A DNA stretch of 35,618 bases from a virus, in the IMG/VR virus record IMGVR_UViG_3300035662_000089, positions 1 through 35,618 of that record; one strand, 5' to 3'. The notes under the pieces were generated by a model. The model searched no databases. It had not been told where the DNA came from and was given only the letters and a program-made list of their open reading frames with translations. The translations under genes were made by a program, and so were the position numbers. This document shows positions 4,390-29,380 of this stretch, piece by piece; positions within the stretch are counted from its first letter, which is position 1; every line of letters begins with the position of its first letter.

Positions 4390-4938
4390 TCACTCCTCAG
4401 GAACTCGGATCACGGCGAACCCCCAGCAGTCGGGGAAGTTGTGCCATTGCCAACCGGTCTCGGCGATGAACTCGGTGACCGCCTTCTTCACCGGGTACAG
4501 CGGCCGGGGCGGTGCGCCTTCGGGCGTCGGTAGCTCGGTGTCGTGCAGGCAGATGACGCCGCCGGGACGCACCAGCCAGCGGTAGATCGCCAACTCCTGC
4601 ACCGTGTGGTCCCAATGGTGACTGGTGTCGATGAACACGATGTCGGCCGGGTCGAGCGCCGCCACCAGTGCCGGGTCGGTGTCGTCGCCCTGGACGTGAG
4701 TCCAGTTGTCGTGCTCACCGATGGCCGGTGCTGCGTCCAGGTCGACCGACGTGAGCCGACCGCCGGTGCGCTGCAATGCGTGCAGCCAGGCGATCGTCGA
4801 CACGCCCGACCGAGAGCCGAGCTCGAGCACGTGCTGGGCGTCGAGTTGTTCGACGAGTTGCACCATCCGAGGAAGGTGCAGGTAGATGTCCGATGGCGTC
4901 TTGCACGCCTCGGCGTACTGCAGGTCGAGCAGGTTCAT
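4390..4938 (-). CDS. Class I SAM methyltransferase 2
   Basis: A 182-residue methyltransferase with motif I HVLELGSRSGVSTIAWL, acid loop TSVDLDAAP, and IVFIDTSHHWDHTVQEL followed by RPGGVICLHD. It resembles the upstream methyltransferase in plan, but the sequences differ, so the pair could act on different positions. ATG 4938 gives an ATGA overlap; GTG 4950 is another possible start. It closes the cassette, right before the connector gene. Confidence 0.82.
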   Translation of the reverse strand: MNLLDLQYAEACKTPSDIYLHLPRMVQLVEQLDAQHVLELGSRSGVSTIAWLHALQRTGGRLTSVDLDAAPAIGEHDNWTHVQGDDTDPALVAALDPADIVFIDTSHHWDHTVQELAIYRWLVRPGGVICLHDTELPTPEGAPPRPLYPVKKAVTEFIAETGWQWHNFPDCWGFAVIRVPEE

Positions 4939-5477
4939 CGCTTCCACCACCAGACAGACGTGCCGATCTCCACCTGGACATCGACCGGGCGAAGGTGCCG
5001 GGCGATGCCCTGACGGACCGGCGGGTGCATGACGTCGTCACCGCAGATGATCCCGCCCTCGGCAAGCCAGGGCAGCACGGCGGCGATGTTGTCGGCCACC
5101 TCGGCCTCAGTGTGTTCGGCGTCGATGAACACGAACGCCAGCGGCGAAGCCTTGTCAGCGAAGAACTCTCGCCAGCCCACCCGGTGAGCGATCACGTTGC
5201 CGTCGGTGAACTCGTCGACGTTGCGTTGCCACTGGGCGAACACGTCACGCTCGGCGGCCAGGGTGCTGCTGATTTCGCCGGGCGAACCGGCCCAGGTGTC
5301 GACGGCGTGGAGCGGGCGAGGGTTGATCGCTTTTGCCAGTGCGCACGTCGAGCGACCGGTCCACGATCCGACCTCGACGATCAGTCCGGGGACGTCGGCG
5401 ACGCTGCGCGCCAGGTCGGCGACCGCCCGCTGCGACGCCACGCTGAACCATTCCTCGCCGAACGGGTCGGCGCTCAT
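4935..5477 (-). CDS. Class I SAM methyltransferase 1
   Basis: A 180-residue methyltransferase (Methyltransf_24-like). Motif I is LIVEVGSWTGRSTCALA and the acid loop HAVDTW follows; FVFIDAEHTEAEVADNIA and LAEGGIICGDD are the later strands. ATG 5477 overlaps the previous stop. Family members often methylate sugars or small acceptors. Next to two glycosyltransferases, O-methylation of the glycan is a reasonable inference. Confidence 0.85.
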   Translation of the reverse strand: MSADPFGEEWFSVASQRAVADLARSVADVPGLIVEVGSWTGRSTCALAKAINPRPLHAVDTWAGSPGEISSTLAAERDVFAQWQRNVDEFTDGNVIAHRVGWREFFADKASPLAFVFIDAEHTEAEVADNIAAVLPWLAEGGIICGDDVMHPPVRQGIARHLRPVDVQVEIGTSVWWWKR

Positions 5478-6277
5478 CGGGGCCGATACCACGACGCCGG
5501 GGCGTGGCCCTCCACGATCCATCTCGGCCAGGTGTCGTCGACGTCGACCGGCGTCATCTTCGTGCCGTCGACGTGGATGCCGTCACGGTAGAAGGTGTCT
5601 CGCTCGAGGCCGTCTCGGATCTGATCCTCAACCTCGGGATGGCAGAAACTGCCAACCTTGCGGATCGCTGCTTCGGGTCCACCGAGCCACGACAGGTGCC
5701 AGCCGACGTCCTGCAGGTGCGGCGGGCAGAGTGCCGTCATCCGCACGTCGCGCATGTACGAGAATCGGCGCGCCTCGGGGAACTTGGCGAGGTGGCCCAC
5801 CGTGGCGGCGACGGTGCCGTACCACGGGTGCGGGTACAGCCAGTCGACGGCCCAGAAATGCCCTCGCTGACCGAACGACCAGAACCCCTGCGGGCGACAG
5901 TTGCGAGCGTGCAATGCCCTCGGGATCTCGTCGACATCGGACTGCAGAATCACGTCATGATCGCTCAAGTCGAGCCGTGCGAGCCCTCGGCCGATGAATT
6001 CGCGCTGTGCGTGCTCACGTGCCCAGGGGTCGTTGTCCTGCGCCTTGCTCGGCATCTCGCCCTCGTCGACGACGACGTGGACGATCTTGTCTGCCCAGGG
6101 GGCGAACCGTTCGGCGTGCTCGGCGTACCACAGCGGCTTGGCGTGGTCCTGGTGGTCGCGTGTGGCCTCGACGAGCACGAAGGCGTCGATGGAGTCGTAC
6201 AGCTCGACCAGTCGGCATTCGAGGATGTCGTGCTCGTTGTTGAACGGGAAGGCGTCGATGACCTTCGGGCGGGTCAC
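5474..6277 (-). CDS. Glycosyltransferase family 17-like protein
   Basis: A 267-residue protein from GTG 6277 (GTGA overlap). DAFPFNNEHDILECRLVELY, then DAFVLVEATRDHQDHAKPLW and ILQSDVDEIPRA (with the DxDE metal-binding acids), are typical of GT17, related to beta-1,4-N-acetylglucosaminyltransferases. HLSWLGG and FCHPEV also match. It presumably extends or caps the glycan begun by the preceding enzyme. The family is clear; the donor is inferred. Confidence 0.85.
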   Translation of the reverse strand: MTRPKVIDAFPFNNEHDILECRLVELYDSIDAFVLVEATRDHQDHAKPLWYAEHAERFAPWADKIVHVVVDEGEMPSKAQDNDPWAREHAQREFIGRGLARLDLSDHDVILQSDVDEIPRALHARNCRPQGFWSFGQRGHFWAVDWLYPHPWYGTVAATVGHLAKFPEARRFSYMRDVRMTALCPPHLQDVGWHLSWLGGPEAAIRKVGSFCHPEVEDQIRDGLERDTFYRDGIHVDGTKMTPVDVDDTWPRWIVEGHAPASWYRPR

Positions 6278-8106
6278 TTGCGGCCCGCCTTGTAGCCAGC
6301 GATGATCGGCACCCGGCTCATCCACGTCTTGCGGTCGGCCTCGCTGGCGTCGACTGCCGCCATGTAGATCGGGTCGGCCTCGCGTGCGGACTCGTTGCCG
6401 TCGTAGCCCGGATGGTGGTGAATCACCCGGCAGTCGTGGGCATGGCCGTAGACCCCTCGCGCCTTGGCGAGTTCGATGACCTCCTTGTCGGAGTACCAGT
6501 GCCGGTACGCCTCGGAGATGGCCACGCCGGGGCCGTCAAGGGTGGAGCCCTCGTCGTCGATGTAGCTGCGCCGGATCAGGAAGTGATCGGCGTGCGAGCC
6601 CTTCGCCACGGCAGGGTTGCGGACCCGACCGACCTCGGAGTCGTTGGTGCCGACCACGTCGAAGCGGTCGGTGAGCGCCTGCGCAGCCTCAAACCATCCA
6701 GGCGTGAACTCGCAATCGTCGCCGACGATCAGCACCCAATCGGCCGACGACTTGCGGACACAGTCGTTCACGTTCTCGGCGTAGGTCTTGCCTTCCTCAC
6801 CCTCGACGAGCCAGCACGCCGTCGCCGGCGCCGTTGCCCACAGCGATTCCCAGAATCGATCGCGATTCGCCTCCCGCATCAGCGGCACGATCACGTCGCA
6901 CCGCTCCATCGGCGGCTTGTCAGCGGCCGGCGGCTGCGGCTCGAGGTTGGCGATGAGCGGTTGCCAGTACGAGGCCCAGACCTTCTCGACGTCGTACTCC
7001 GCAGCGAAGCCGATGCTGAGTTCGGCGATCTGCGCCAGGTCGGCCTCGTACGCCTGGCAGAGCTTGTGGTACACGTCGATGGTCGAGGCGGCCAGGTAGC
7101 TCGCCGCCTGCGGTGCGTCCCATTCGAGCTGCCCGGTGACCGACCAGCCGTAGCCGATCAGTTCGCTCTGCGCCGAGAAGTCCGAGGCGATGACGGGCGT
7201 GCCGCACGCCTGCGCCTCGATCATCGGCACGCAGAACCCCTCGCCCCGACTCGGAGCGAGCAGCACGTCGCAGCTGCTGTAGAGCGCCGCCATCATCTTC
7301 GGCGAGAAGCCGATGCGGTGGGCGTAGGCGTCGGTGAAGATCAGCGCGTGCATCGGGATGGCTGCGTGCTTGGCGAGTTCGATCAGGTCGATGCCGCTGC
7401 CGTCCATGCCGAACCGGTCGGAGTGCACGACGAGCACGGCGTCCTGGTGGTCTTTCCAGAATGCACCGAAGGCACGGAAGGCTTCATTGAAGCCCTTGCG
7501 GTCCTTCGGGTCTTTGTTCATCGCGACCATCAGCACGGCAAAGGCGTTCTGCGGGATGCCGAACACCGTGCGGGCGTCCTGCGTCTCGCCGTTGATCTCG
7601 AGGTGCGTGGTCGGCTTGTAGTCGGCGGTGTCGACGGCGAGCGGGGCGTACAGCGGGTCCAGTCCGGCCTCGATGAGTTGCTGCTCACCGAACCGGGACA
7701 TCGCCACCGGGGTGGCGCCCGAGCGGTGGAAGAACTTCACCACGGCCGGCGGTGCGGGGAAGTGGTCGACGGGCGTCCAGGCGAGCACCTTCAGGTCATC
7801 CATCGGCACCCGACCGAGCACCCACACGTCAGTCAGCGGGATGATCCAGCCCGACGACAGGTCACCTTCGAAGAAGTGCTCGGCGTGGCCGCGCAGGATG
7901 TCGATCGAGTTCTCCAGCCGACCAGACGGGTACAGCGTGACCGGCCCGTAGGGCGTCGGCCACTGCTTCACGCCGATCTGGTGGCCGTAGGTGCAGGCGA
8001 CGGCGACGTCATGGCCGTCTCGCTTGAGACGGGTGACGAGGTGTCGGCACTGCACGCCGTAGCCGGTGGGCGAGTCGGGCGAGTTGGCGTGGATCAAGAA
8101 CTTCAT
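6274..8106 (-). CDS. Two-domain glycosyltransferase (GT4 + GT2-like)
   Basis: A 610-residue fusion. Residues 1-385 are a GT-B, family-4-like enzyme: HANSPDSPTGYG at the N-terminus and APSRGEGFCVPMIEAQACGT (284-303), with the Ex7E pair Glu289 and Glu297 and a GTPVIAS turn. Residues about 402-600 look like a GT-A, family-2-like domain: DVIVPLMREANRDRF at the start and VGDDCEFTPGW (461-471) with the DxD-type acids. Such an enzyme could add two sugars in turn. It opens a four-gene cassette inserted in the structural operon. Acceptor and sugars are unknown; virion protein is the main candidate. Confidence 0.85.
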   Translation of the reverse strand: MKFLIHANSPDSPTGYGVQCRHLVTRLKRDGHDVAVACTYGHQIGVKQWPTPYGPVTLYPSGRLENSIDILRGHAEHFFEGDLSSGWIIPLTDVWVLGRVPMDDLKVLAWTPVDHFPAPPAVVKFFHRSGATPVAMSRFGEQQLIEAGLDPLYAPLAVDTADYKPTTHLEINGETQDARTVFGIPQNAFAVLMVAMNKDPKDRKGFNEAFRAFGAFWKDHQDAVLVVHSDRFGMDGSGIDLIELAKHAAIPMHALIFTDAYAHRIGFSPKMMAALYSSCDVLLAPSRGEGFCVPMIEAQACGTPVIASDFSAQSELIGYGWSVTGQLEWDAPQAASYLAASTIDVYHKLCQAYEADLAQIAELSIGFAAEYDVEKVWASYWQPLIANLEPQPPAADKPPMERCDVIVPLMREANRDRFWESLWATAPATACWLVEGEEGKTYAENVNDCVRKSSADWVLIVGDDCEFTPGWFEAAQALTDRFDVVGTNDSEVGRVRNPAVAKGSHADHFLIRRSYIDDEGSTLDGPGVAISEAYRHWYSDKEVIELAKARGVYGHAHDCRVIHHHPGYDGNESAREADPIYMAAVDASEADRKTWMSRVPIIAGYKAGRK

Positions 8107-8282
8107 GCGGCACCCACCCGGGCGGCGTGCGTGCGGTACTCGATGCGCTGGCCGACGGTGATGGTGCCGACGAGCACGAACTCGGGACCGTCAGCGGCGA
8201 CGGAGACGACCTGCTCGCCATCTCGTTCGACGGCGTGCAAGTCCTCGTGCATGGTGGCGCGAGGGATGCGGTGAATGGGCAT
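8103..8282 (-). CDS. Small hypothetical protein, 59 aa
   Basis: ATG 8282 follows GGAGG by five bases. It has a short basic N-terminus (HRIPRATMHEDLHAVERDGE) and two or three likely strands (EQVVSVAADGPEFVLVGTIT, then VGQRIEYRTHAARVG). It is coupled to the glycosyltransferase by ATGA. A small capsid decoration protein is possible, but nothing identifies it. Confidence 0.55.
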   Translation of the reverse strand: MPIHRIPRATMHEDLHAVERDGEQVVSVAADGPEFVLVGTITVGQRIEYRTHAARVGAA

Positions 8283-8320
8283 GGTTCCTCCGGGCAGGGG
8301 ATGGGGTAAGGGGGATGGCC

Positions 8321-8371
8321 CCCGGGCAGGAGAGCGGGGCGCCGCGGCACCTGGCGCTTCTCCTGCCCGGG
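8321..8371 (-). terminator. Large hairpin downstream of capsid gene
   Basis: Perfect 13-bp arms (8321-8333 with 8359-8371, CCCGGGCAGGAGA and its complement) around a 25-base centre that can itself pair GCGCC with GGCGC. It starts 30 bp after the capsid stop and ends before the next ribosome-binding site. There is no T-run, so it may be a partial terminator or an mRNA-stabilising hairpin. Confidence 0.6.
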
Positions 8372-8400
8372 AGATCGACAACGCTGGGGGCGTTGGAAGG

Positions 8401-9699
8401 TCAGGCGACAACCTGGCGAATCACGTTGACCGCGGTGGCGTCGAGCAGGTCGCCATCGACCCGCCACTTGCCACGGAACCCGATCTCGTCGGTGTCGAAG
8501 TACCGGCTGTCGTCACGCTCGATGACCGGGTTGCCGACGGTGCGGACGTAGTACGCCGACATGTCGCCGAAGGCCACCGTCTTGTTCGCCGAGCCGGCCG
8601 CCGAGACGTTCGGGTCGGTGTAGACCGGCTTGTCGAGCAGGCGGTCGGGCTGGCCGTTGATGATGCCGTTGGTGAGCGACGGCTGCCACAGGAACGCACC
8701 GATGGTGCCGCCCGCACCGTCACGCAGCTTGCGCAGCGTGCCAGCCGTGGAGTCGTTCATCAGCCAGGCGGCGTCGGGCGAGTTGCGGTACTCGTCGTTC
8801 ACGCTGTACTGCAGGTCGATGAGCTTCTCCACCGTCGGCGTGATGAGCGAGCCACCGGTGGCGATGGTGCCCGAACCGGCGATGGCGGTCATGATGCCGT
8901 TGGGGCGACCCGAGCCAGAGCCAGCAACGAGGTCGGTGGCGATGACACGGCCGAGCGCACGGCCGATGTTGCGGCCGAGGAAGCCCTCGATGTCGACGCC
9001 GGAGTCGGTGACGACCTCGGATGCCACGACCACCAGGGCGCCGTACTTGAAGGCGTCCAGCCGGGTACGGGCGAAGGTCGGATCGGTGCCGCCGATGGCG
9101 GTGCCCTGAGCGACGACGAGCGTGCCGATCGTGTGAGCGCTCACACGGGGCAGGTCGAGCGGCTCACCCGAGGTGGTGTTGAGCTTGGTGGTCGGCGCAC
9201 GGAAGATGCCGTTCGACGCCTCCATGTACTCGTACAGGGTGCGGGCCAGCGTGGTCGGCACGAGCGAACCGGCCGAGCCGGTGTCCCATGCGAGGTCACG
9301 CAGTTCCATCGGTGATGCGCCCTGACGGAGCAGTTCGCGCTCCTTGGCGGCCGAGCGGATGTCGACCTCGAAGGCGACCTTCTCGCCACGCATACAGGCG
9401 TCGAGGAACGAGCGCAGCTCGTTGACGGCCTGCTGCGGGGTGGCGACGCCGGGGTCGCTGCTGAACACGCGGGCCTGAGCCTCGCGCAGCTGGGCGGCCT
9501 CGCTCTCGCGACGCTCGCGCATCACGTACTCACGGATCTCGGCGTCGAGATCGTCGATCTCGGCGTCCATGCGCTCGATGCGGGCCTGCTCTTCGGCCGT
9601 GCGCTCACGGCCTGCGGTGTTGTCGAGTTCAGCCTTCTGAGCGTCCCACGCCCGAAGGCGCTTCTCGTTCAGCTTCTCGACGTGTGCACGAATGTCCAT
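8401..9699 (-). CDS. Major capsid protein (HK97 fold)
   Basis: A 432-residue HK97-type capsid protein. Residues 1-95 are a charged coiled coil (KLNEKRLRAWDAQKAEL ... EIDDLDAEIREYV), the delta domain normally cut away by the protease. The shell domain follows: LVPTTLARTLYEYMEASNGI, FGDMSAYYVR, and the RDDSRYFDTDEIGFRGKWRV end. Length and order are usual. A strong hairpin lies just downstream. The following genes are glycosyl- and methyltransferases, which might act on this protein. Confidence 0.93.
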   Translation of the reverse strand: MDIRAHVEKLNEKRLRAWDAQKAELDNTAGRERTAEEQARIERMDAEIDDLDAEIREYVMRERRESEAAQLREAQARVFSSDPGVATPQQAVNELRSFLDACMRGEKVAFEVDIRSAAKERELLRQGASPMELRDLAWDTGSAGSLVPTTLARTLYEYMEASNGIFRAPTTKLNTTSGEPLDLPRVSAHTIGTLVVAQGTAIGGTDPTFARTRLDAFKYGALVVVASEVVTDSGVDIEGFLGRNIGRALGRVIATDLVAGSGSGRPNGIMTAIAGSGTIATGGSLITPTVEKLIDLQYSVNDEYRNSPDAAWLMNDSTAGTLRKLRDGAGGTIGAFLWQPSLTNGIINGQPDRLLDKPVYTDPNVSAAGSANKTVAFGDMSAYYVRTVGNPVIERDDSRYFDTDEIGFRGKWRVDGDLLDATAVNVIRQVVA

Positions 9700-16224: not shown

Positions 16225-16695
16225 TCACCACGCTCGGGTAGTTGCCGCTCCGAGGTGTCCAGCGATGCTCGGCCAGTGCCGGGCGACGGTGGCCGACAGG
16301 CCGGGGCGGTCGAGGATGCGCTCAAGGTGCTGGACGATGAGCGGGTTCGGCTTGATTGCTCGTCCCGCTGGCACCCAGGTGCGGACGAGGTCGCAGGCTT
16401 CGTCGACGGTGTGGCCGAGCTTGACGGCGATGCCGATGGCAATGGCCGGCGAGCGGGACTCGCCTCGGTGGCAGTGGATGAGCAGGCTGTCGGCGTGCGC
16501 TGCGCCGAAGTCGACGAGCGAGGTAACGGCGGTGATGCTCGGCGCCATCGGTCCCGAGGTCGTGTCGGCGAAGGTGCGGGCCCGTTGTAACGGGTGACCG
16601 AACGCTGCCTCGCTCGCCTTCGGCCCGGCAGTGATGACGGCGGCGAAGCGGTGCGCCTCAGCCTTGGCCTCGTCAAGGTTGCGCACGACGATCAC
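16225..16695 (-). CDS. Dual-specificity/tyrosine-phosphatase-like protein
   Basis: A 156-residue protein from GTG 16695 (GTGA overlap with HNH). LLIHCHRGESRSPA (71-84) is the cysteine-phosphatase P-loop HCx5R with Cys75 and Arg81. TFADTTSG (41-48) supplies a possible general-acid Asp44, and PNPLIVQHLERILDR (117-131) matches the end of a small bacterial DSP family. It could remove phosphate from Tyr/Ser/Thr or from nucleotide-like substrates. A phosphatase between HNH and terminase is unusual. Catalytic residues are intact; the target is unknown. Confidence 0.75.
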   Translation of the reverse strand: MIVVRNLDEAKAEAHRFAAVITAGPKASEAAFGHPLQRARTFADTTSGPMAPSITAVTSLVDFGAAHADSLLIHCHRGESRSPAIAIGIAVKLGHTVDEACDLVRTWVPAGRAIKPNPLIVQHLERILDRPGLSATVARHWPSIAGHLGAATTRAW

Positions 16696-16949
16696 CACGT
16701 ACGCGTCGTCCCTTGCACTCGCATCTGGTTGCCTCGCCGTGCGCCCTTGCTGGCGTTGCAGGACTTGCACTCGGCAAGCAGCACGCTGCCAGGGTGGCCG
16801 TCGATGACGTGGCCTGCTTCCCAGGTGGAGCCGTGCTCGGCCTTCGTGCGATCGCAGACCCAGCAGCGGGTGAACGGGTCGGCGTTGGCTGCGTCCCTGA
16901 CGACCTTGGCCCTGCGGCGGTAGCTCGAGGACTGGTGCAGTGCGCTCAC
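16692..16949 (-). CDS. HNH endonuclease
   Basis: An 85-residue HNH nuclease from GTG 16949 (GGGGGTGG upstream). Two CxxC pairs (CWVC and CKSC) bracket the core GHVIDGH and end in CNASKGARRGN, the HNH zinc-finger arrangement. In many siphophages an HNH protein is encoded beside the terminase and is needed for specific terminase cutting. The position, two genes before the small terminase, fits that role. Confidence 0.85.
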   Translation of the reverse strand: MSALHQSSSYRRRAKVVRDAANADPFTRCWVCDRTKAEHGSTWEAGHVIDGHPGSVLLAECKSCNASKGARRGNQMRVQGTTRTW

Positions 16950-17012
16950 ACGCCACCCCCGACAACGGCAACGCCCGCCGGTGCTGCTGCACACGACGGG
17001 CGACTTACACCG

Positions 17013-17588: not shown

Positions 17589-19736
17589 TCAGAAGTCGTC
17601 CATCGAGGGAATGGTCTTGCCGGGGCTCACGCTGGGGCGCGCCCCCTCTAGAGAGGGGGCGCGCGCCCCAGTTGCGTCGGGGTGCCGCGCCCCACCGCGC
17701 CCCGCACCGCGCCCCACGTCCTGACCTGGGGTTTCGTCAACCGCGCCCCGGTGCGCCCCAACAATCGGGGCGCGCTCCGTTTCGCGACCGCGCCCCGCAC
17801 TTCGGGGCGCGCTTTCAGGGTAGTTATCCACAGGCTGCAGCACCCTGCTTCGGCGTGCTTTCTGCGCCGCCCTGATGCGGTCGTTCTTTGCTGAGCGGCC
17901 TGCCGCCCGCAGTGCTTCGGCGGCCTTGCGGGCCGATGCGTCGACCGCCACGCCGAGCGCATCGAGGTCGGCGACCGTCTCGGCGGTACCGGCGGGCACG
18001 GCGTCGATGCCGGTGCGGTAGTGCAACTGCGGCTCGTCTCGCTGCATCAGTACCACCTCCTCGGGCACCCAGCCCATGCGCCGCTTCGTCGCCTTGAGGG
18101 TGAATCCGCCGTCGGCTTTCATCATTCTCCAGACGACATCGACGTCGTCGTTCTTCGCTGAGGTGCCTCGCTGGCCCTTCTCGACGTCCTTGCCGGCGTG
18201 ATCGACCCGCAGGAACGCCCGCCCCTCGGCCTTCAGGTGCAGCCCGGTCCAGCGGTAGAAGTTGCGCACCGTGTCGGCGTCGTTCTCGTCGCCGGCGACG
18301 GCCCGGCCGAAGGTGTCGATGACCACCAGGTCGGCGCCGACGAGCTGCGCCAGCCGGGCGATGGCTTTGCCGCCCTCGGGCGCATCGGCGGGCGGCAGTG
18401 ACGGCAACAGGGCGTAGTGCAACCAGCCCAGGTCCATCTCGGCGCCGAACCCCATCGCCGTGAGCCGCTCAGCGAGGTCGTCGGCGGTCATCTCGTAGTC
18501 GAGGTACAGCACCCGTCGCCGCTCGATCTTGATGCCGTCGAGCCCGATCAGGCCGCAGGCGATCGAGGCGCACAGCCACAGGGCGAACAGCGACTTGCCG
18601 GTGCCGCCCGGGGCGAACAGCGCCGTGGCGCGCCCCTGAGCGATGACGGGCTCGGCCAGCCACGACGCCTCGGTGGTGTCTTTCGCCCAGAAGTCGCCCC
18701 AGTCGAGCAGCAGGCCCCGCAGCGAGGCGTCGTAGTCGCTCATCTCGTCGTCGATCGGCGCCTCGGTGCCGACGGGCACCACCGGGAGCGCAGCGACGAC
18801 AGCGGCACCTTCGTCGGCGATGATCTGGCGGGCCAGCGCCCGTTCGTCGCCGCCATGTGTGCGTGCCGCCTCGTATTGGAACCGGCTGTAGGTGCGCTCC
18901 GCCTGCAGCCACGGCACGGCCGAGGTGAACACCTTGAGGGCGTCGTTGCCTTGCCAGCCGACGGTCGCCGACGTGCCCTCACGCCGGTCCTTGCCGGGCC
19001 GGGTCCAGTGCTGCTCACCGTCGGCGTCGATGTGATGGAGTTGCCAACCGTCGCGCTCGAGCAGGTCGGGCCAGGTGGTGCGGTCGTTCCAGCGATCGGC
19101 CGGCGATGACGACAGGAACACGTCACGCTGCCGGGTCGGTGCTGGTGCCGGTGCGCTGCGCTCCACCGGGGCGAGCAGGTCCATCATCCAGGCGGGCGCC
19201 TCGGCCATGTCGATCTCGCCGGGGGCGTGGCCGACTTCCCAGGCGTAGGCGTTGCCGTTGGGGTGCACGGTTGGGGCGACGACGACCTGGCCGCCTTCGC
19301 CTCGGATGTCGAGCCCGGCACCGAGCCTGCCTGACTGGTCATTGCGAGGCACCGGCCGCCCGGCTGGAACCAGTAGGTAGCGGTGTTCGCTGCCGCTGCC
19401 GGTGATCGACGTGATCGTCGCCGGAAGCGGGCCGTGTACCTTCTCAAGGTCGTGCAGCGTGTCGGTGCCGCTGAAGGTGTCCCGCTCGTCGATGTCGAGC
19501 ACGAAGAACCCTTCGCCGGTGTCGAGGTGGCCGGTGGCGATACCGACGCCGTGGCCCCGGTACAGCCCGTTCCACCAGGCGCCGATCGCTTCGGTGCGGG
19601 TGGTGGCGGCCTGCTGCCATGCGGCCATCGGCGGGTGTTTCATGCCGGGCCGGATCGGCAGCACCCGGAACCCGTGCGCAGCGAGGTCGAGCGCCGCCTG
19701 GTGCACGTCGGCGGGTGGCGGTGTGGTGGCGGGCAT
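17589..19736 (-). CDS. Primase-polymerase / RecA-like helicase fusion
   Basis: A 715-residue replication protein. Residues about 10-190 are a prim-pol (archaeo-eukaryotic primase) domain: VLDIDERD (79-86) with the metal-binding acids, GSGSEHRYLLVP (113-124), and a GLDIRGEGGQVVVAP strand (141-155). Residues about 340-560 are a RecA-like ATPase (AAA_25/RepA type): Walker A APGGTGKS (375-382), Walker B LVVIDTFGR (470-478) and RVDHAGKD (510-517). ATG 19736 follows GGGGGAG by 7 bases and overlaps the previous stop. The last 90 residues are low-complexity (AGRGRETER ... GRGAGRGG), and their DNA holds the candidate origin. Confidence 0.85.
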   Translation of the reverse strand: MPATTPPPADVHQAALDLAAHGFRVLPIRPGMKHPPMAAWQQAATTRTEAIGAWWNGLYRGHGVGIATGHLDTGEGFFVLDIDERDTFSGTDTLHDLEKVHGPLPATITSITGSGSEHRYLLVPAGRPVPRNDQSGRLGAGLDIRGEGGQVVVAPTVHPNGNAYAWEVGHAPGEIDMAEAPAWMMDLLAPVERSAPAPAPTRQRDVFLSSSPADRWNDRTTWPDLLERDGWQLHHIDADGEQHWTRPGKDRREGTSATVGWQGNDALKVFTSAVPWLQAERTYSRFQYEAARTHGGDERALARQIIADEGAAVVAALPVVPVGTEAPIDDEMSDYDASLRGLLLDWGDFWAKDTTEASWLAEPVIAQGRATALFAPGGTGKSLFALWLCASIACGLIGLDGIKIERRRVLYLDYEMTADDLAERLTAMGFGAEMDLGWLHYALLPSLPPADAPEGGKAIARLAQLVGADLVVIDTFGRAVAGDENDADTVRNFYRWTGLHLKAEGRAFLRVDHAGKDVEKGQRGTSAKNDDVDVVWRMMKADGGFTLKATKRRMGWVPEEVVLMQRDEPQLHYRTGIDAVPAGTAETVADLDALGVAVDASARKAAEALRAAGRSAKNDRIRAAQKARRSRVLQPVDNYPESAPRSAGRGRETERAPIVGAHRGAVDETPGQDVGRGAGRGGARHPDATGARAPSLEGARPSVSPGKTIPSMDDF
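17632..17671. repeat. 40-bp near-perfect palindrome
   Basis: An 18-base left arm and 20-base right arm (the right has an extra CG) around a 2-base centre, pairing from CTGGGG to CCCCAG. It lies in the last codons of the primase-helicase gene and contains four of the GGGGCGC/GCGCCCC motifs. It could be a protein-binding site or a strong RNA hairpin. Confidence 0.85.
17634..17810. repeat. Cluster of 12 GGGGCGC/GCGCCCC motifs (candidate origin iterons)
   Basis: Within 177 bp at the 3' end of the primase-helicase gene, GGGGCGC occurs at 17634, 17656, 17767 and 17804, and its complement GCGCCCC at 17639, 17663, 17687, 17697, 17709, 17743, 17753 and 17790. Three copies (17687, 17697, 17709) are spaced 10 and 12 bp apart, about one helical turn. 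Such clustered short repeats next to replication genes are typical of iteron origins. Confidence 0.6.
17824..17832 (+). promoter_or_regulatory. DnaA box, exact consensus
   Basis: TTATCCACA is a perfect 9-base DnaA-box consensus, 14 bp beyond the end of the GGGGCGC motif cluster. On the minus strand it is coding sequence within the primase-helicase gene (Val-Asp-Asn-Tyr). It is the only such 9-mer noticed. Confidence 0.55.
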
Positions 19737-21019
19737 CACGCGGCTCCCCCGAACAGGTCGAGTTGGCCGGGTGTCTCTGGCCGGGTGCCGAACAGTGCCT
19801 TGCGCACCTCGGCGCACCTGGCCGGGTAGAGGGCGTGGTTGCGTTCGTCGATGTCGATGCCGATGGCGTCGCGGCCGTGGCAGTCAGCAACAGCGAGGGT
19901 GGTGCCGGTGCCTGCGAACGGGTCGAGCACGACGCCGGGCCGGTAGTCGTCGTGGCCGCAGTCGGTCCAGCCGATGAGGTGCTTGGTGGTGCGAAATGAA
20001 GGCGTCGGCGCATCGTCCAGCAGGTACTCGTAGTCGCGTAGCGTGCCCATCGTTTCGCGTGTCGCACGAAACTGCCGTCCGTCAAGGCTCCTGCCCTTGG
20101 CGTCGGTGCGCTCCGTCGCCTCCACCCGCCGCCGTGGCTCGCCGCACACGTTGCACACCTCGGCCGGGCACATCGACAGCACCAGCCGCTCGGCCAGTTT
20201 CGCTGGCCACATGGCGTAATGGGCGAGCGATGACGGTTGTGTGGTGAGTGTCCATGTGTCGTGTTCGTCGAACCAGGCGTCGAGCGGCGGGGCGCCTGCG
20301 GGGTTTCGGTCCATGCCGACTGTGCCGTTTCGCGCCTTGCCGAGATCGCCGTTGCGCTCGAACTCGGTAGCGCCTCGCTGTGATGGCTTCGGATCGGGAC
20401 CCGGGGCACGCACCGCCGTCAGGTCGAACCACCGCTTCGGCGACCGGGTGGCGACGGTGATGTAGGACGTGGACGGCCGGTACTTGTCGCCCAACGCCCC
20501 CACTGCCGGGTTCGGCCGGTGCCAGACGATCATGTTGCGTACGAGCCACTGCCCGGCGGGTGACGGCTCGCCGGTGAGCAGGTTCCGCCCGTAGGCGAGG
20601 CTGGCGGCGTAGAGCTGCGGCACGAGGGCGAGGCACTTCGGGCGCGGCCAGCCTGGGCCGTCTTTGGCAGTCGGCGTATCGTTCCACCGTTTACCGTCAG
20701 CCTCACTATTTGGACGCCATGTCGCGTCGCCGGTCTTGAATCCCAGCCCGCCACCGGCGTAGGTGTCGCCGAGCTCGATGGCGATGCTGCCCCACGGTGC
20801 GAGCACCCGGCCCCATTCGGCGGTGAGTGCGAGCAGGGTGTCGAGGAAGGTGGCGGGGTCGGGTTCGCTGCCGATCTCGGCGTGTTTCATCGGATGATCG
20901 GCGGGCAGGTACGACCGCAGGGCGATGAACGGTGGCGAGCACGCCACCAGCGACACCGACCCGTCTGCGATGGTGGCGGTCTGCTCTCGCGTGTCGCCGA
21001 CTAGGTATTGAACACTCAC
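19736..21019 (-). CDS. DNA methyltransferase, N4-C/N6-A type (orphan)
   Basis: A 427-residue methyltransferase from GTG 21019 (GTGA overlap). Motif IV, CSPPFIALRSY (27-37), precedes motif I, VLDPFAGTGTT (364-374), the beta-class order of N6-adenine and N4-cytosine DNA methyltransferases; SPPF rather than NPPY favours N4-cytosine but does not prove it. CNVCGEP in the C-terminal half may form a zinc knuckle. No restriction endonuclease is nearby, so it is an orphan, probably protecting phage DNA or marking it for replication or packaging. A longer upstream frame shows no family features and was not used. Confidence 0.85.
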   Translation of the reverse strand: MSVQYLVGDTREQTATIADGSVSLVACSPPFIALRSYLPADHPMKHAEIGSEPDPATFLDTLLALTAEWGRVLAPWGSIAIELGDTYAGGGLGFKTGDATWRPNSEADGKRWNDTPTAKDGPGWPRPKCLALVPQLYAASLAYGRNLLTGEPSPAGQWLVRNMIVWHRPNPAVGALGDKYRPSTSYITVATRSPKRWFDLTAVRAPGPDPKPSQRGATEFERNGDLGKARNGTVGMDRNPAGAPPLDAWFDEHDTWTLTTQPSSLAHYAMWPAKLAERLVLSMCPAEVCNVCGEPRRRVEATERTDAKGRSLDGRQFRATRETMGTLRDYEYLLDDAPTPSFRTTKHLIGWTDCGHDDYRPGVVLDPFAGTGTTLAVADCHGRDAIGIDIDERNHALYPARCAEVRKALFGTRPETPGQLDLFGGAA

Positions 21020-21399
21020 GCCGCTCCCCTTCCCTCGTTCTTGCGTCGCGCCCGGTAGTCCCGTCGCGCCTCGCTCACTGCTGTCTTGCACGGCTGGCAC
21101 GCCTCCTCGCCGAGCCGGTGGTGCCGCCAGTACCCGGCGGCGGTCCCGCAGGCGTCGCCGCCGTGGCGGTATCTGCGCCGCTGCCCTGGTGTCATGCCGC
21201 CGACGACCATGACCGGCGACGGGTCGTCCGGTTGGCGCAGTACCCACGCCCGGCACCGGTTGAGGTGCTGGCAGCCAGCGCAGATGGCGAGCCCGGCCCG
21301 TTCCTGCCTGGCGCGCTGGTGCGGGGTCGAGCCGTCGACACACATCTCGTTGGCTCGGCCGGTGCAGGCGAGCTGCGCACGCAGTTCGGCCCAGTTCAT
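21016..21399 (-). CDS. Divergent WhiB-like protein
   Basis: A 127-residue protein overlapping the WhiB gene by ATGA. It keeps the Wbl cysteine spacing (Cys40, Cys43, Cys49, C-x2-C-x5-C, with Cys12 or Cys20 as the fourth), but the GxWGG turn is replaced by VVGGMTPGQRRR. The C-terminal part, CGTAAGYWRHHRLGEEACQP (84-103), repeats the module of the upstream WhiB protein. It looks like a diverged paralogue of that gene. A cluster is possible but less certain, and its target is unknown. Confidence 0.65.
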   Translation of the reverse strand: MNWAELRAQLACTGRANEMCVDGSTPHQRARQERAGLAICAGCQHLNRCRAWVLRQPDDPSPVMVVGGMTPGQRRRYRHGGDACGTAAGYWRHHRLGEEACQPCKTAVSEARRDYRARRKNEGRGAA

Positions 21400-21818
21400 G
21401 CCGCCCTGCCCTGCTTGCGCTCCCGCTCAGCGTTGTAGGCGGCGTGCGCCTCACGGCATGACTCGCACGGCCGCTCGCCGCGGCGGTGATGCGCAAAGAA
21501 ACCAGCATCGGTGCCGTGCTTGATCGGCTTGAGCGTCGTGCCCGGCTTCGGCCCCTTGCGGCCACCCGCCCGTCGCTGCCTCTCCTGCCGCAACTGCCGA
21601 CCGGACAGACCGCCCCAGATGCCTTCGGTCTCGCCAACCTCGATGGCGAACTCCAGGCACTGCTTGGCCACCGGACAGGCGGCGCAGACCGCCTGGGCGT
21701 TGCGAGCGGTGAACGTGTCGCCCCGCTCGGGGAAGAATAACTCGGGGTCGAGCCCACGGCAGGCTGCGAGGGTGCGCCAGTCAGCGGGAACAGTCCCGAT
21801 TCGGTACTGTTCGCTCAC
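21396..21818 (-). CDS. WhiB-family regulator with C-terminal Cys module
   Basis: A 140-residue WhiB-like (Wbl) protein, expected to bind a 4Fe-4S cluster and act on host sigma-factor transcription. The four cluster cysteines are Cys20, Cys45, Cys48 and Cys54 (CxxC-x5-C), and the GIWGG turn is at 66-70, both diagnostic. A basic stretch follows. Residues 101-125 (HGTDAGFFAHHRRGERPCES ... C121) form an added module that recurs in the neighbour. GTG 21818 lies in a GTGA overlap. Phage Wbl proteins such as the one in mycobacteriophage TM4 alter host division and block superinfection; the same here is inference. Confidence 0.85.
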   Translation of the reverse strand: MSEQYRIGTVPADWRTLAACRGLDPELFFPERGDTFTARNAQAVCAACPVAKQCLEFAIEVGETEGIWGGLSGRQLRQERQRRAGGRKGPKPGTTLKPIKHGTDAGFFAHHRRGERPCESCREAHAAYNAERERKQGRAA

Positions 21819-21997
21819 GACGGGCCTCCCGCCATGCGCTCGACGATGGCGTCGCACAGCGCGTCGGCCAGGTCGTGGATGCGCAACAGGATGTCGTCGC
21901 CGGACGTGTCGATCCACGCACTGCCGGCGTTGGTGAACGGGTGCCAACGCTCGTGCAGCACCTCGTCGATGATCGGGTACAGCTCATCCTTCGTCAT
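21815..21997 (-). CDS. Hypothetical protein, 60 aa
   Basis: ATG 21997 has one of the best ribosome-binding sites in the window (AAGGAGG, six bases upstream). The protein is acidic and helical (KDELYPIIDEVLHERWHPF, then IHDLADALCDAIVERMAGG). It lies directly upstream of the WhiB-like genes and is coupled to the first by GTGA. The strong site suggests higher translation of this and the following regulators. Confidence 0.55.
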   Translation of the reverse strand: MTKDELYPIIDEVLHERWHPFTNAGSAWIDTSGDDILLRIHDLADALCDAIVERMAGGPS

Positions 21998-24582: not shown

Positions 24583-25325
24583 TGGGCCACCTGCAGCATC
24601 TGCTCGATCGCCTTGGTGACGATCACCGGCTCCGGTGCCGTCGGCGTGAACCCTGCCCATTCGCACCACACATCGACGGCCCGGTGGGCGAGCTGCAAGC
24701 GCTCGGCGGCGTTGGCGGCGCTGGCGGCGGCGGCGAGTTTGGCGGCGTAGGCGGCGGCGTTGACGGCGTAGGCGGCGACGGCGTTTGCGGCGGCGGCGTA
24801 GGCGTTGGCGGCGTAGGCGGCGGCGGCGGCGGCGGCGTTGGCGGCGGCGGCGTAGGCGGCGGCGTTGGCGTTGGCGTTGGCGTTGGCGTTGGCGTTGGCG
24901 ATTCTGCACTGCTCGGCGGTCACCGTCCCATCGCACCAACCTTCTGCCGCTTCGATCGCTGCCAACGCTTCAGGCGCTGACGTCTGATGCAGCACCTGCC
25001 GGGCCTGATCGGCGGCAACCCGCACCCACACCCGCTGACGCTCCAACTCGGTCAGCGGATGGGTGCCGGTGCCGACGATGCGGTGCGCCAGGTCGAGCAC
25101 CTTCACCGAGCATGTCGGGCACAACAGGTCGCCGTCACGGTGCGTGCAGATCGAGTCGTTCACCCATTGCACAATCCGCGCCAACACCGAGTCGGCGCAC
25201 GCCGGCAGGTCGGTGATCATGGTGTCGCCGGACTCCCACGAGATGACGTTCATGGCGCAGCCCATGCCGCTGCCCGCCCGATGCGAGCCGACGGCAAGCC
25301 GGAGGGGATGGTCGACGGCGCTCAC
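24579..25325 (-). CDS. Ala/Asn/Tyr-repeat protein
   Basis: A 248-residue protein from GTG 25325 (GTGA overlap; an adjacent GTG at 25328 is also possible). The N-terminal part has CxxC (CPTC) and a helical stretch (VWVRVAADQARQVLHQ), then AAEGWCDGTVTAEQCRIA leads into about 70 residues built almost only of Ala with regularly spaced Asn and Tyr (NANANANANAN, AAAYAAAANAAAA). It ends in a helical segment (AAERLQLAHRAVDVWCEWAGF). Phage and actinobacterial proteins with the same helical lead-in followed by AAAWAAA/AAAYAAA repeats are known, but their function is not. The repeat would form a long alanine helix. Confidence 0.65.
   Translation of the reverse strand: MSAVDHPLRLAVGSHRAGSGMGCAMNVISWESGDTMITDLPACADSVLARIVQWVNDSICTHRDGDLLCPTCSVKVLDLAHRIVGTGTHPLTELERQRVWVRVAADQARQVLHQTSAPEALAAIEAAEGWCDGTVTAEQCRIANANANANANANAAAYAAAANAAAAAAAYAANAYAAAANAVAAYAVNAAAYAAKLAAAASAANAAERLQLAHRAVDVWCEWAGFTPTAPEPVIVTKAIEQMLQVAQ
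24861..24900. repeat. Hexanucleotide tandem repeat (GGCGTT)n
   Basis: Six perfect copies of GGCGTT plus GGCG in a row, encoding the Asn-Ala dipeptide run on the minus strand. It lies at the edge of a longer, imperfect GGCGGCG/GGCGTA repeat region from about 24700. Length changes by whole units would keep the reading frame. Confidence 0.9.
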
Positions 25326-28542: not shown

Positions 28543-28571
28543 AGCAGCATCGTGAACGGTTGGCGGCTCAT
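28506..28571 (-). CDS. Tiny protein, 21 aa, duplicate C-terminus
   Basis: A 21-codon frame from ATG 28571 (ATGA overlap with the DpdA-like stop) to TGA at 28508-28506, overlapping the start of the lytic transglycosylase. The last eleven residues, AAYVWLRWCDR, are identical to those of the 31-residue gene because both lie in the 37-bp repeat. It may be a by-product of the duplication that keeps translational coupling intact rather than a functional protein. Confidence 0.35.
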   Translation of the reverse strand: MSRQPFTMLLAAYVWLRWCDR

Positions 28572-29347
28572 CGCAACACCAACTGCATCTGTGCATCGGT
28601 GATCGCCGACGAGGTCACGCTGTCGCGCCATGCAAGGGCGTGCGGCAGGCAGTTAGCGCACGACGAAACGGCAGTGTGCGGACAGGGCTTGATTCGACGG
28701 CCGCCGTAACTCCAAGCCATCGAGTCGCACGACGCAAGCATGGACCCGTAACGCCGGATGCCCGCACCCTTCACGCCGAAGCCGTGCAGACGCAGCCCAC
28801 CACTTGCCAGCGTTGACACAATCGCGCCGATTTCGGCGGTTGCTTCACGGCGGCAAACAGAGCCGACCCCGACCGTCGACTCGGAGCGCAGGTCGACCCC
28901 GGCCGCGTCGTACATGCGAGCGTGCGCCTCGTAGTCCTCTAGGCGCCAACCTTGCAGCACTGGCACGAACGGCACGTCGGGCGCCATGTCGCGCAGTGTG
29001 AGGAAGTTCTCCGTCGTCCATTGCTGGTGCGCCTTGACTGTGCCGCCGAGCCACGCCTTGGCGCGCTCAAGAATCCACGGCTCGCACATCGCGTCTTGCG
29101 GGGCGCACCAGTCAAGCGACCCGATCTCGTCGCGATAGCGACGACACGCAGCGACGTAAGCGGCGGGCGCTTCACGCCACCGCCCGTGCATCGACAGTTC
29201 GGTGAACCCCCCCGAATCGAGCGCCCACCGAGAGCGTGCGATCGGGAGCGTGCGGCGGCCCTTCAGCCGATTGTGCGACACGAACAGCGGCACGTCGACC
29301 GTGGCCAACCAGTGCGGCATGTGTGTCCCGAGGTAGAACGTCGTCAT
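28568..29347 (-). CDS. dpdA: DpdA-like 7-deazaguanine DNA transglycosylase (TGT superfamily)
   Basis: A 259-residue protein related to tRNA-guanine transglycosylase. DpdA proteins exchange guanine in DNA for a 7-deazaguanine such as preQ0, protecting phage DNA from restriction. The start FYLGTHMPHWLATVDVPLFV, ALDSGGFTEL (42-51, with the nucleophile/base Asp44), CAPQDAMCEPW (81-91), PFVPVLQGW (126-134), VGVGSVCRRE (159-168) and HGFGVKG (188-194) match the short DpdA-like group in actinobacteria and their phages. C222, C230 and C233 with a nearby His resemble the zinc site. ATG 29347 overlaps the upstream stop. No preQ0 synthesis genes are visible here. Family assignment is strong; DNA rather than RNA as substrate is inferred. 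Confidence 0.8.
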   Translation of the reverse strand: MTTFYLGTHMPHWLATVDVPLFVSHNRLKGRRTLPIARSRWALDSGGFTELSMHGRWREAPAAYVAACRRYRDEIGSLDWCAPQDAMCEPWILERAKAWLGGTVKAHQQWTTENFLTLRDMAPDVPFVPVLQGWRLEDYEAHARMYDAAGVDLRSESTVGVGSVCRREATAEIGAIVSTLASGGLRLHGFGVKGAGIRRYGSMLASCDSMAWSYGGRRIKPCPHTAVSSCANCLPHALAWRDSVTSSAITDAQMQLVLR

Positions 29348-29380
29348 CGGTCGCACCAGCGCAGCCACACGTAGGCGGCG
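29344..29380. repeat. 37-bp direct repeat, copy 1
   Basis: Identical over 37 bases to 28506-28542. On the minus strand it covers the end of the 31-residue gene and the ATG of the DpdA-like gene. Together the two copies bracket the DpdA-like gene and the 21-residue gene. Confidence 0.9.

What the first reader, a model, noticed from the sequence alone, without database searches (positions are those of the whole stretch)
4390..8282. Glycosyl- and methyltransferase cassette inside the structural operon
Two glycosyltransferases (one a GT4+GT2 fusion) and two class I methyltransferases are inserted between capsid and connector. Phage-encoded glycosyltransferases are known to glycosylate mycobacteriophage virion proteins. 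The place next to the capsid suggests that the capsid or another virion protein carries a methylated glycan.
Basis: partly seen in the sequence, partly recalled or inferred. Interest (0 to 1): 0.6.

Follow-up and report, generated by a model that had tools for sequence, protein, structure and literature searches.

The report
Capsid-linked sugar cassette with RNA switch
Next to its capsid gene this uncultured virus of (probably) actinobacteria carries a conserved set of sugar-adding and methyl-adding enzymes, most likely used to coat its own particles with a methylated glycan, and a previously undescribed RNA element in front of the set can hide its ribosome-binding site, apparently to control how much of these enzymes is made.

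Summary
On the - strand, between the HK97 major capsid gene (MCP) and the connector gene, lie a 59-aa ORF, a GT4+GT2 fusion, a GT17 glycosyltransferase and two Methyltransf_24-type methyltransferases, overlapping as one translational unit and under purifying selection. The virion-glycan reading is well supported by comparison, not proven. Of 118 virus contigs fetched by glycosyltransferase queries alone, 106 have an MCP immediately upstream, 11 end at the enzyme gene, 1 differs. GT4-GT2 and GT17 are constant in the lineage; the methyltransferases come, go, swap order or fuse. More distant relatives keep the GT4 beside the MCP but swap in other sugar genes. Isolated phages phiPsal1 and Mae-JY09 share the layout. 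Closest characterised system: cluster O mycobacteriophages, whose capsid and tail tube are reported to be glycosylated; the genes are not recognisable orthologues. DNA modification is unlikely: the window's DpdA is absent from 23 other records. New here: the MCP-cassette leader holds an RNA arm (L) that pairs either with a middle arm or with an arm containing the cassette's Shine-Dalgarno. This pairing covaries at 9 of 11 pairs across 20 leaders, is absent at other gene starts, and has no Rfam match: a likely translational switch. No biochemistry was possible.

The parts
8401..9699 (-). HK97-fold major capsid protein (probable acceptor of the glycan; inference)
   Evidence: PF05065 E 9.7e-50, phrog_10 4e-60; immediately upstream of the GT4 in 106 of 118 contigs fetched by glycosyltransferase queries
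8379..8395 (-). short hairpin just after the MCP stop codon
   Evidence: CAACGCCCCCAGCGTTG; a hairpin of other sequence at the same place in relatives
8359..8373 (-). leader RNA arm L (CTCCCGGGCAGGAGA)
   Evidence: complementary to both M and R; L/R pairing covaries across 20 leaders
8334..8358 (-). inner hairpin region between arms L and M
8319..8333 (-). leader RNA arm M (TCTCCTGCCCGGGGG), alternative partner of L that leaves the Shine-Dalgarno free
   Evidence: 15-bp L/M helix; favoured by 6 kcal/mol in this clade
8287..8298 (-). leader RNA arm R (CCTGCCCGGAGG) containing the Shine-Dalgarno of the 59-aa ORF
   Evidence: 9-bp L/R helix; same pairing in relatives with compensatory changes
8103..8282 (-). 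conserved 59-aa protein of unknown function, first gene of the cassette
   Evidence: related ORF found in 49 of 63 fused-GT contigs and 12 of 66 others; dN/dS 0-0.11 on few sites
6274..8106 (-). GT4 (GT-B, retaining) + GT2 (GT-A) fusion glycosyltransferase, 610 aa
   Evidence: Pfam; invariant E289-x7-E297 and GDD 462-464; AlphaFold pLDDT 87 and Foldseek to GT4 structures
5474..6277 (-). GT17-family glycosyltransferase, 267 aa
   Evidence: PF04724 E 3e-24; invariant D130, D132, E133 in the numbering of the extended ORF P0003; GT-A fold, pLDDT 90
4935..5477 (-). MT1, class I methyltransferase (Methyltransf_24), about 180 aa
   Evidence: nearest solved sequence NovP, a sugar O-methyltransferase; invariant D134, D162, D163 in the numbering of P0002
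4390..4938 (-). MT2, class I methyltransferase (Methyltransf_24 / RMNT_CmcI), 182 aa
   Evidence: O-methyltransferases and MycE among solved sequence relatives; invariant D108, H136, D137 in the numbering of P0001
3756..4388 (-). gp6-like head-tail connector, downstream border of the cassette
   Evidence: phrog_442 E 7e-22

Best explanation
The region is a late, capsid-linked virion glycosylation cassette. Made with the head proteins, the GT4+GT2 fusion puts on the first two sugars (GT4 most likely primes a Ser/Thr of the capsid or another major virion protein; GT2 extends), GT17 adds a further sugar, and MT1/MT2 cap the glycan by O-methylation. Shown: gene content, intact catalytic motifs, purifying selection, near-absolute adjacency to the MCP, constant transferases with variable methyltransferases. 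Inferred: the acceptor, the order of steps, the sugars, and methylation of the glycan. Between MCP and cassette an RNA leader with arms L, M and R controls cassette translation: L pairs with M (Shine-Dalgarno free) or R (Shine-Dalgarno hidden). Shown: the L/R pairing, by covariation. Inferred: that it keeps enzyme synthesis far below capsid synthesis, or lets it happen only on freshly made mRNA before the L/R fold closes.
For: Among 118 contigs retrieved only by glycosyltransferase queries, 106 have the MCP directly upstream, 11 are truncated there, 1 differs. In 48 of 51 stand-alone-GT4 relatives (mostly 37-44% identical) the upstream ORF is a phrog_10 major head protein; downstream lie GT2, epimerase/GDP-mannose dehydratase, cytidylyltransferase, hexapeptide and Methyltransf_24 genes up to the connector. 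GT4 tracks MCP (Mantel r 0.81, n=72; MCP-portal 0.89 and MCP-GT4 0.82 on the same 43). Methyltransferase patterns: none 4, MT1 3, MT2 18, MT1-MT2 15, reversed 2, fused 23; GT17 is never missing where fusion and connector are both seen. phiPsal1: MCP-GT4-MT-GT2-neck. Mae-JY09: MCP of another family, then GT4, a GT2-like protein and an epimerase. Cluster O precedent. No transmembrane-like segment. Leader: L/R helix score >=13 in 16 of 21 nonredundant leaders, 0 of 57 other gene starts, 2.7% of 840 random positions; own against swapped arms 14.7 and 7.8; 9 of 11 pairs change on both sides, covariation 0.418 against 0.139 +/- 0.024, 0 of 500 shuffles.
Against: No direct evidence of a glycan, of the acceptor, or of the sugars. 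Adjacency could reflect shared late timing rather than substrate. MCP Ser+Thr content does not differ between cassette-bearing and cassette-less relatives (0.149, 0.154, 0.152). Virion glycosylation genes can lie far from the capsid (near the 3' end of the genome in a cluster F1 phage), so adjacency is not needed for function. The leader arms were found by searching for the best helix, which favours pairing (controls address this), and in the window's own clade the L/M fold wins by 6 kcal/mol, so the default there would be an open Shine-Dalgarno. The direction of the switch is therefore uncertain.
Confidence: 0.7

Rival explanations
1. The enzymes modify a host cell-envelope glycan late in infection (superinfection exclusion, or release of progeny from receptor), and sit next to the capsid gene only because that operon is strongly expressed late.
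For: Prevention of superinfection by changing cell-wall glycosylation is one role proposed for glycosyltransferases of freshwater actinobacterial phages. GT4 structural relatives include wall- and lipid-modifying enzymes such as PimA and PimB'.
Against: No transmembrane-like segment in any cassette protein; no flippase or polyprenyl-phosphate enzyme in the cassette; late structural-operon timing is late for exclusion; long-term linkage to the MCP.
Confidence: 0.13
2. The enzymes decorate virion DNA (hypermodified bases). The window encodes DpdA, which puts 7-deazaguanine into DNA, so sugars or methyl groups could be added to that base.
For: DpdA at 28568-29368 (PF23859, E 1.7e-80). DNA protection was proposed for related phages' glycosyltransferases.
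Against: DpdA is in 1 of 24 records tested, including cassette-bearing records of 20-36 kb (many are fragments). No pyrimidine-hydroxylating or hydroxymethylating gene among the window ORFs scanned. Known DNA glucosyltransferases (T4 AGT and BGT, from general knowledge) belong to other families.
Confidence: 0.05
3. The cassette does glycosylate virions, but the main acceptor is not the capsid protein: tail tube, the 59-aa protein, or the kelch-like 480-aa protein encoded between portal and protease.
For: In cluster O phages both capsid and tail tube are reported as modified. The 59-aa ORF travels with the cassette.
Against: The kelch gene is not fixed in the lineage (portal runs directly to protease in L015 and L017); the 59-aa ORF was not found in 14 of 63 fused-GT contigs; the one constant neighbour is the MCP.
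Confidence: 0.25
4. The leader is not a switch: the L-M hairpin is an mRNA-processing or stability element after the MCP, and the L/R match is a by-product of repeats.
For: The L-M hairpin is very stable and is the minimum-energy fold in the window (z -4.6). Six of the stand-alone-GT4 phages, among them phiPsal1, have a hairpin with a T-rich tail at the same place instead.
Against: L/R pairing is maintained by compensatory change even where M pairs weakly (L223 16 bp against 7; L196 11 against 7), and L/R is the more stable fold in 15 of 20 leaders. Where an HNH gene has inserted after the MCP, the element stays attached to the 59-aa ORF.
Confidence: 0.2

Closest known systems
Cluster O (Corndog, Firecracker) mycobacteriophage modification genes: O-methyltransferase + three glycosyltransferases between portal and protease (PMC4351075; capsid and tail-tube glycosylation reported by Freeman et al. 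2023 as cited in PMC11600133 and PMC11256854; the original paper is not held)
   Same: Four adjacent late genes inside the head operon: a class I methyltransferase of about 195 aa plus several glycosyltransferases.
   Different: Different position (before the protease rather than after the MCP); no significant sequence similarity between the gene sets or the MCPs; other glycosyltransferase families; no GT4-GT2 fusion, no GT17.
Pontimonas phage phiPsal1 (MG835450), MCP-GT4-MT-GT2-neck
   Same: Same slot between homologous MCP (33%) and connector (35%); GT4 36% identical over the GT4 half.
   Different: GT4 and GT2 are separate genes, its methyltransferase is of another type and annotated on the opposite strand, no GT17; instead of the L/M/R leader a hairpin with a T-rich tail.
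Microcystis phage Mae-JY09 (PP395641), MCP-GT4-GT2-like-epimerase
   Same: GT4 35% identical, just downstream of a capsid gene and before the head-tail adaptor.
   Different: MCP of another family (phrog_267), a sugar epimerase instead of GT17 and methyltransferases.
Chlorovirus-encoded glycosyltransferases acting on their own capsid protein (general knowledge)
   Same: Solved chlorovirus GT4 B736L (3oy2) is among the nearest structures of the GT4 half; same logic of virus-encoded capsid glycosylation.
   Different: Eukaryotic NCLDV, unrelated capsid and genome layout.
Start-associated sequences (SAS/ESAS) of cluster K mycobacteriophages (PMC3203893)
   Same: Repeats tied to Shine-Dalgarno sites, some with inverted repeats just upstream.
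   Different: SAS is a fixed 13-bp motif at many non-structural genes and its authors found little support for hairpin pairing; this leader occurs once, before the glycan cassette, with strongly covarying arms.

Membership tests
GT17 (Pfam PF04724) | curated Pfam score and GT-A acidic metal motif | tested here: met
   86.1 bits against cut-off 26; invariant DxDE in 18 sequences
GT4 | Glycos_transf_1 score, EX7E motif, GT-B fold | tested here: met
   48.5 against 26.4 bits; E289 and E297 invariant; Foldseek to MshA, PimA, B736L
GT2 (C-terminal half of the fusion) | Glycos_transf_2 score and acidic motif | tested here: met
   29.6 against 23.3 bits; GDD invariant
Methyltransf_24 class I methyltransferases | curated score, SAM motif E-x-G | tested here: met
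   57.7 and 60.2 against 26.3 bits; motifs invariant
TylF / RMNT_CmcI sugar O-methyltransferases | curated Pfam score | tested here: inconclusive
   MT2 passes RMNT_CmcI (28.3 against 23.2); MT1 falls short of TylF (17.8 against 23)
Virion glycosylation system of actinobacteriophages | glycosyltransferase genes kept with the virion gene module | tested here: met
   106 of 118 contigs, 11 of the rest truncated
Virion glycosylation system of actinobacteriophages | glycan demonstrated on capsid or tail tube | not testable with these tools
   needs mass spectrometry of particles
Virion glycosylation system of actinobacteriophages | recognisable homology to the cluster O enzymes | tested here: not met
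   no significant BLASTP match between the window genes and Firecracker gp33-gp36; so it works like, but is not shown to descend from, that system
Translational attenuator / riboswitch-like leader | mutually exclusive helices, one of them hiding the Shine-Dalgarno, supported by covariation | tested here: met
Translational attenuator / riboswitch-like leader | shown change of translation in response to a signal | not testable with these tools
   needs reporter assays
Known Rfam family | score above a family's gathering threshold | tested here: not met
   only two chance microRNA matches far below threshold in 8000-8700

The most novel reading that the evidence does not exclude
The MCP-cassette leader is a new class of phage RNA switch, possibly a co-transcriptional timer: arm M captures L first and leaves the Shine-Dalgarno open on nascent mRNA, then R displaces M and shuts translation, so that each capsid mRNA yields only a short burst of glycan enzymes. 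This would couple the dose of glycan enzymes to new capsid transcription.
Probability: 0.35. Interest if true: 0.75.

Novelty: new variant of a known kind. Interest (0 to 1): 0.6.

Why it matters
Phage virion glycosylation has been shown in only a few cultured actinobacteriophages. It also offers an alternative to the DNA-protection and superinfection roles suggested for glycosyltransferases of freshwater actinobacterial phages. The covarying leader RNA, found only in front of this cassette among the places tested, makes the dosage control of such enzymes directly testable with a simple reporter.

Tried and rejected
Nearest DNA relatives among isolated phages: none. Orthology to the cluster O enzymes: rejected. 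DNA modification through DpdA: rejected as the general explanation. Capsid Ser/Thr enrichment as a sign of glycosylation sites: no difference; T281 and S284 of the MCP are Ser/Thr in all 36 fused-lineage MCPs but rarely in others, which is confounded by ancestry and alignment and not claimed. An SAS-like repeat spread over the genome: rejected, the R sequence is not over-represented in the window. Intrinsic terminator after the MCP in the window: none with a T-tract there, although related stand-alone-GT4 phages have such hairpins. A pattern scan for the leader in all of IMG/VR gave 75 stretches, about half in the MCP-cassette context; the others mostly show short pairing or lie in coding sequence and look like chance. 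An alignment with an erroneous two-base entry was not used. Searches in the open-paper library for this leader type or a capsid-adjacent cassette found nothing specific.
Full report
WHAT IS THERE. The window is a 35,618-base virus record with its late genes on the - strand. From the MCP (9699-8401) transcription runs through a 59-aa ORF (8282-8103), a 610-aa GT4+GT2 fusion (8106-6274), a GT17 (6277-5474), MT1 (5477-4935) and MT2 (4938-4390) to the connector (4388-3756). Overlaps of four bases join the cassette genes, and MT2 ends just before the connector start. A WhiB gene (21396-21947) points to an actinobacterial host (inference).

ARE THEY REAL ENZYMES. Alignments of 14-18 diverse relatives keep the catalytic motifs: E289 and E297 of GT4, GDD of GT2, DxDE of GT17, and acidic residues of the methyltransferases. 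dN/dS against relatives is 0.03-0.28 for the enzymes. Models are confident (pLDDT 87 and 90) and match GT-B (MshA, sucrose-phosphate synthase, chlorovirus B736L, PimA) and GT-A structures. MT1's nearest solved sequence is NovP, a sugar O-methyltransferase; MT2 passes the RMNT_CmcI cut-off and matches several O-methyltransferases. These are weak pointers to sugar O-methylation, not proof.

LINKAGE TO THE CAPSID. tblastn synteny over the fetched loci gives MCP - small ORF - GT fusion - GT17 - (MT1) - (MT2) - connector down to about 40-48% MCP identity; the MCP relatives at 39% or less that were fetched by the MCP query lack it. To avoid circularity I counted contigs fetched by glycosyltransferase queries only: 118 with the GT4, of which 106 have the MCP directly upstream, 11 end at the GT4 and 1 (L224) differs. 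Their downstream genes include GT2, epimerase/GDP-mannose dehydratase, cytidylyltransferase, hexapeptide transferase, Gfo/Idh oxidoreductase and Methyltransf_24. GT4 distances follow MCP distances (r 0.81, n=72), about as well as portal distances do.

CONSTANT AND VARIABLE PARTS. With GT17 and connector both present, the pattern between them is MT1=MT2 fused (23 contigs), MT2 alone (18), MT1-MT2 (15), none (4), MT1 alone (3) or reversed (2). GT17 is never missing where fusion and connector are both seen. So the transferases are the core and methylation is an optional finish. GT4 and GT2 are fused here but separate in phiPsal1 and Mae-JY09; MT1 and MT2 are separate here but fused elsewhere. Such fusions suggest that each pair works in one pathway (inference). 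HNH endonuclease-like genes have inserted at the MCP and GT junctions in some relatives.

FUNCTION. The nearest studied case is cluster O: O-methyltransferase and three glycosyltransferases between portal and protease, detected in infected cells and proposed by the authors to add methyl and glycan groups to the capsid, with capsid and tail-tube modification later reported (Freeman et al. 2023, known here only through citing papers). No significant sequence similarity links those proteins to the window's, so this is the same way of working, not shown descent. Rival roles are host envelope and DNA. DpdA in the window makes the DNA rival worth testing; it is in none of 23 other records tested, which carry the cassette or its GT4, though many are fragments.

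THE LEADER RNA. The 118 bases between MCP and the small ORF fold strongly (z -4.6). Comparison shows arms L, M and R: L (8373-8359) is complementary to M (8333-8319) and to R (8298-8287), and R carries the Shine-Dalgarno. In 21 nonredundant leaders, selected by a small ORF starting MP-[IVTL]-H, the helix between the last 28 bases and upstream sequence scores 13 or more in 16, against 0 of 57 starts of MCP, protease, connector and portal genes in the same contigs and 2.7% of 840 random places; arms swapped between phages pair far worse. Aligned on the arms, 9 of 11 L/R pairs have changes on both sides; the covariation score is 0.418 against 0.139 +/- 0.024 in shuffles and at most 0.117 for slid partners. 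The arms were extracted as the best helix, so the controls matter most. L/R is favoured in 15 of 20 leaders (median over all 20, 5.8 kcal/mol), L/M in 4, including the window's clade. The element has no Rfam match. An IMG/VR pattern scan found it with long pairing almost only in the MCP-cassette context. Six stand-alone-GT4 phages have a hairpin with a T-rich tail in the same place. Both arrangements would keep cassette expression below capsid expression (inference).

VERDICT. Observation confirmed; interpretation partly supported and strengthened by comparison; cassette filed as a new variant of a known kind; the leader RNA is the most novel part.

Noticed in passing
window 8400-8283 (- strand): Three-arm leader RNA before the cassette with covarying pairing that can hide the Shine-Dalgarno of the first cassette gene; no Rfam family.
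   Followed up: yes
window 8282-8103 (- strand): 59-aa protein starting MP-[IV]-H, related ORFs in 61 contigs (49 of 63 fused-GT contigs), no Pfam or PHROG match; could be an accessory factor or acceptor.
   Followed up: partly
window 28568-29368 (- strand): DpdA (7-deazapurine insertion into DNA), with no preQ0 biosynthesis gene recognised in the ORFs scanned; absent from 23 other records tested.
   Followed up: partly
window 12783-10908 (- strand): 143-aa and kelch-like 480-aa proteins between portal and protease, missing in some close relatives (L015, L017); possible optional virion decoration.
   Followed up: no
L018 3449-4060, L020 2812-3423 and 5516-5968, L028 5445-6134: HNH endonuclease-like genes inserted at the MCP-cassette and GT fusion-GT17 junctions; in L020 and L028 the leader RNA stays attached to the following gene.
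   Followed up: partly
L096, L233, L252, L268, L269, L277 between MCP and GT4: Hairpin with a T-rich tail between capsid and GT4 genes in stand-alone-GT4 phages; may damp cassette transcription.
   Followed up: no
window 16225-16992 (- strand): ORF with a weak dual-specificity phosphatase match (23.1 bits, below the 33.5 cut-off).
   Followed up: no
window 19736-21757 and 21396-21947 (- strand): N6/N4 DNA methylase and a WhiB-like regulator; the latter suggests an actinobacterial host.
   Followed up: no
window 24695-24921: Run of degenerate GGCGGC/GGCGTT triplets, a low-complexity stretch.
   Followed up: no
L224 9062-11257: A GT4 relative in a virus contig with no recognisable relative of this MCP; context not worked out.
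   Followed up: no
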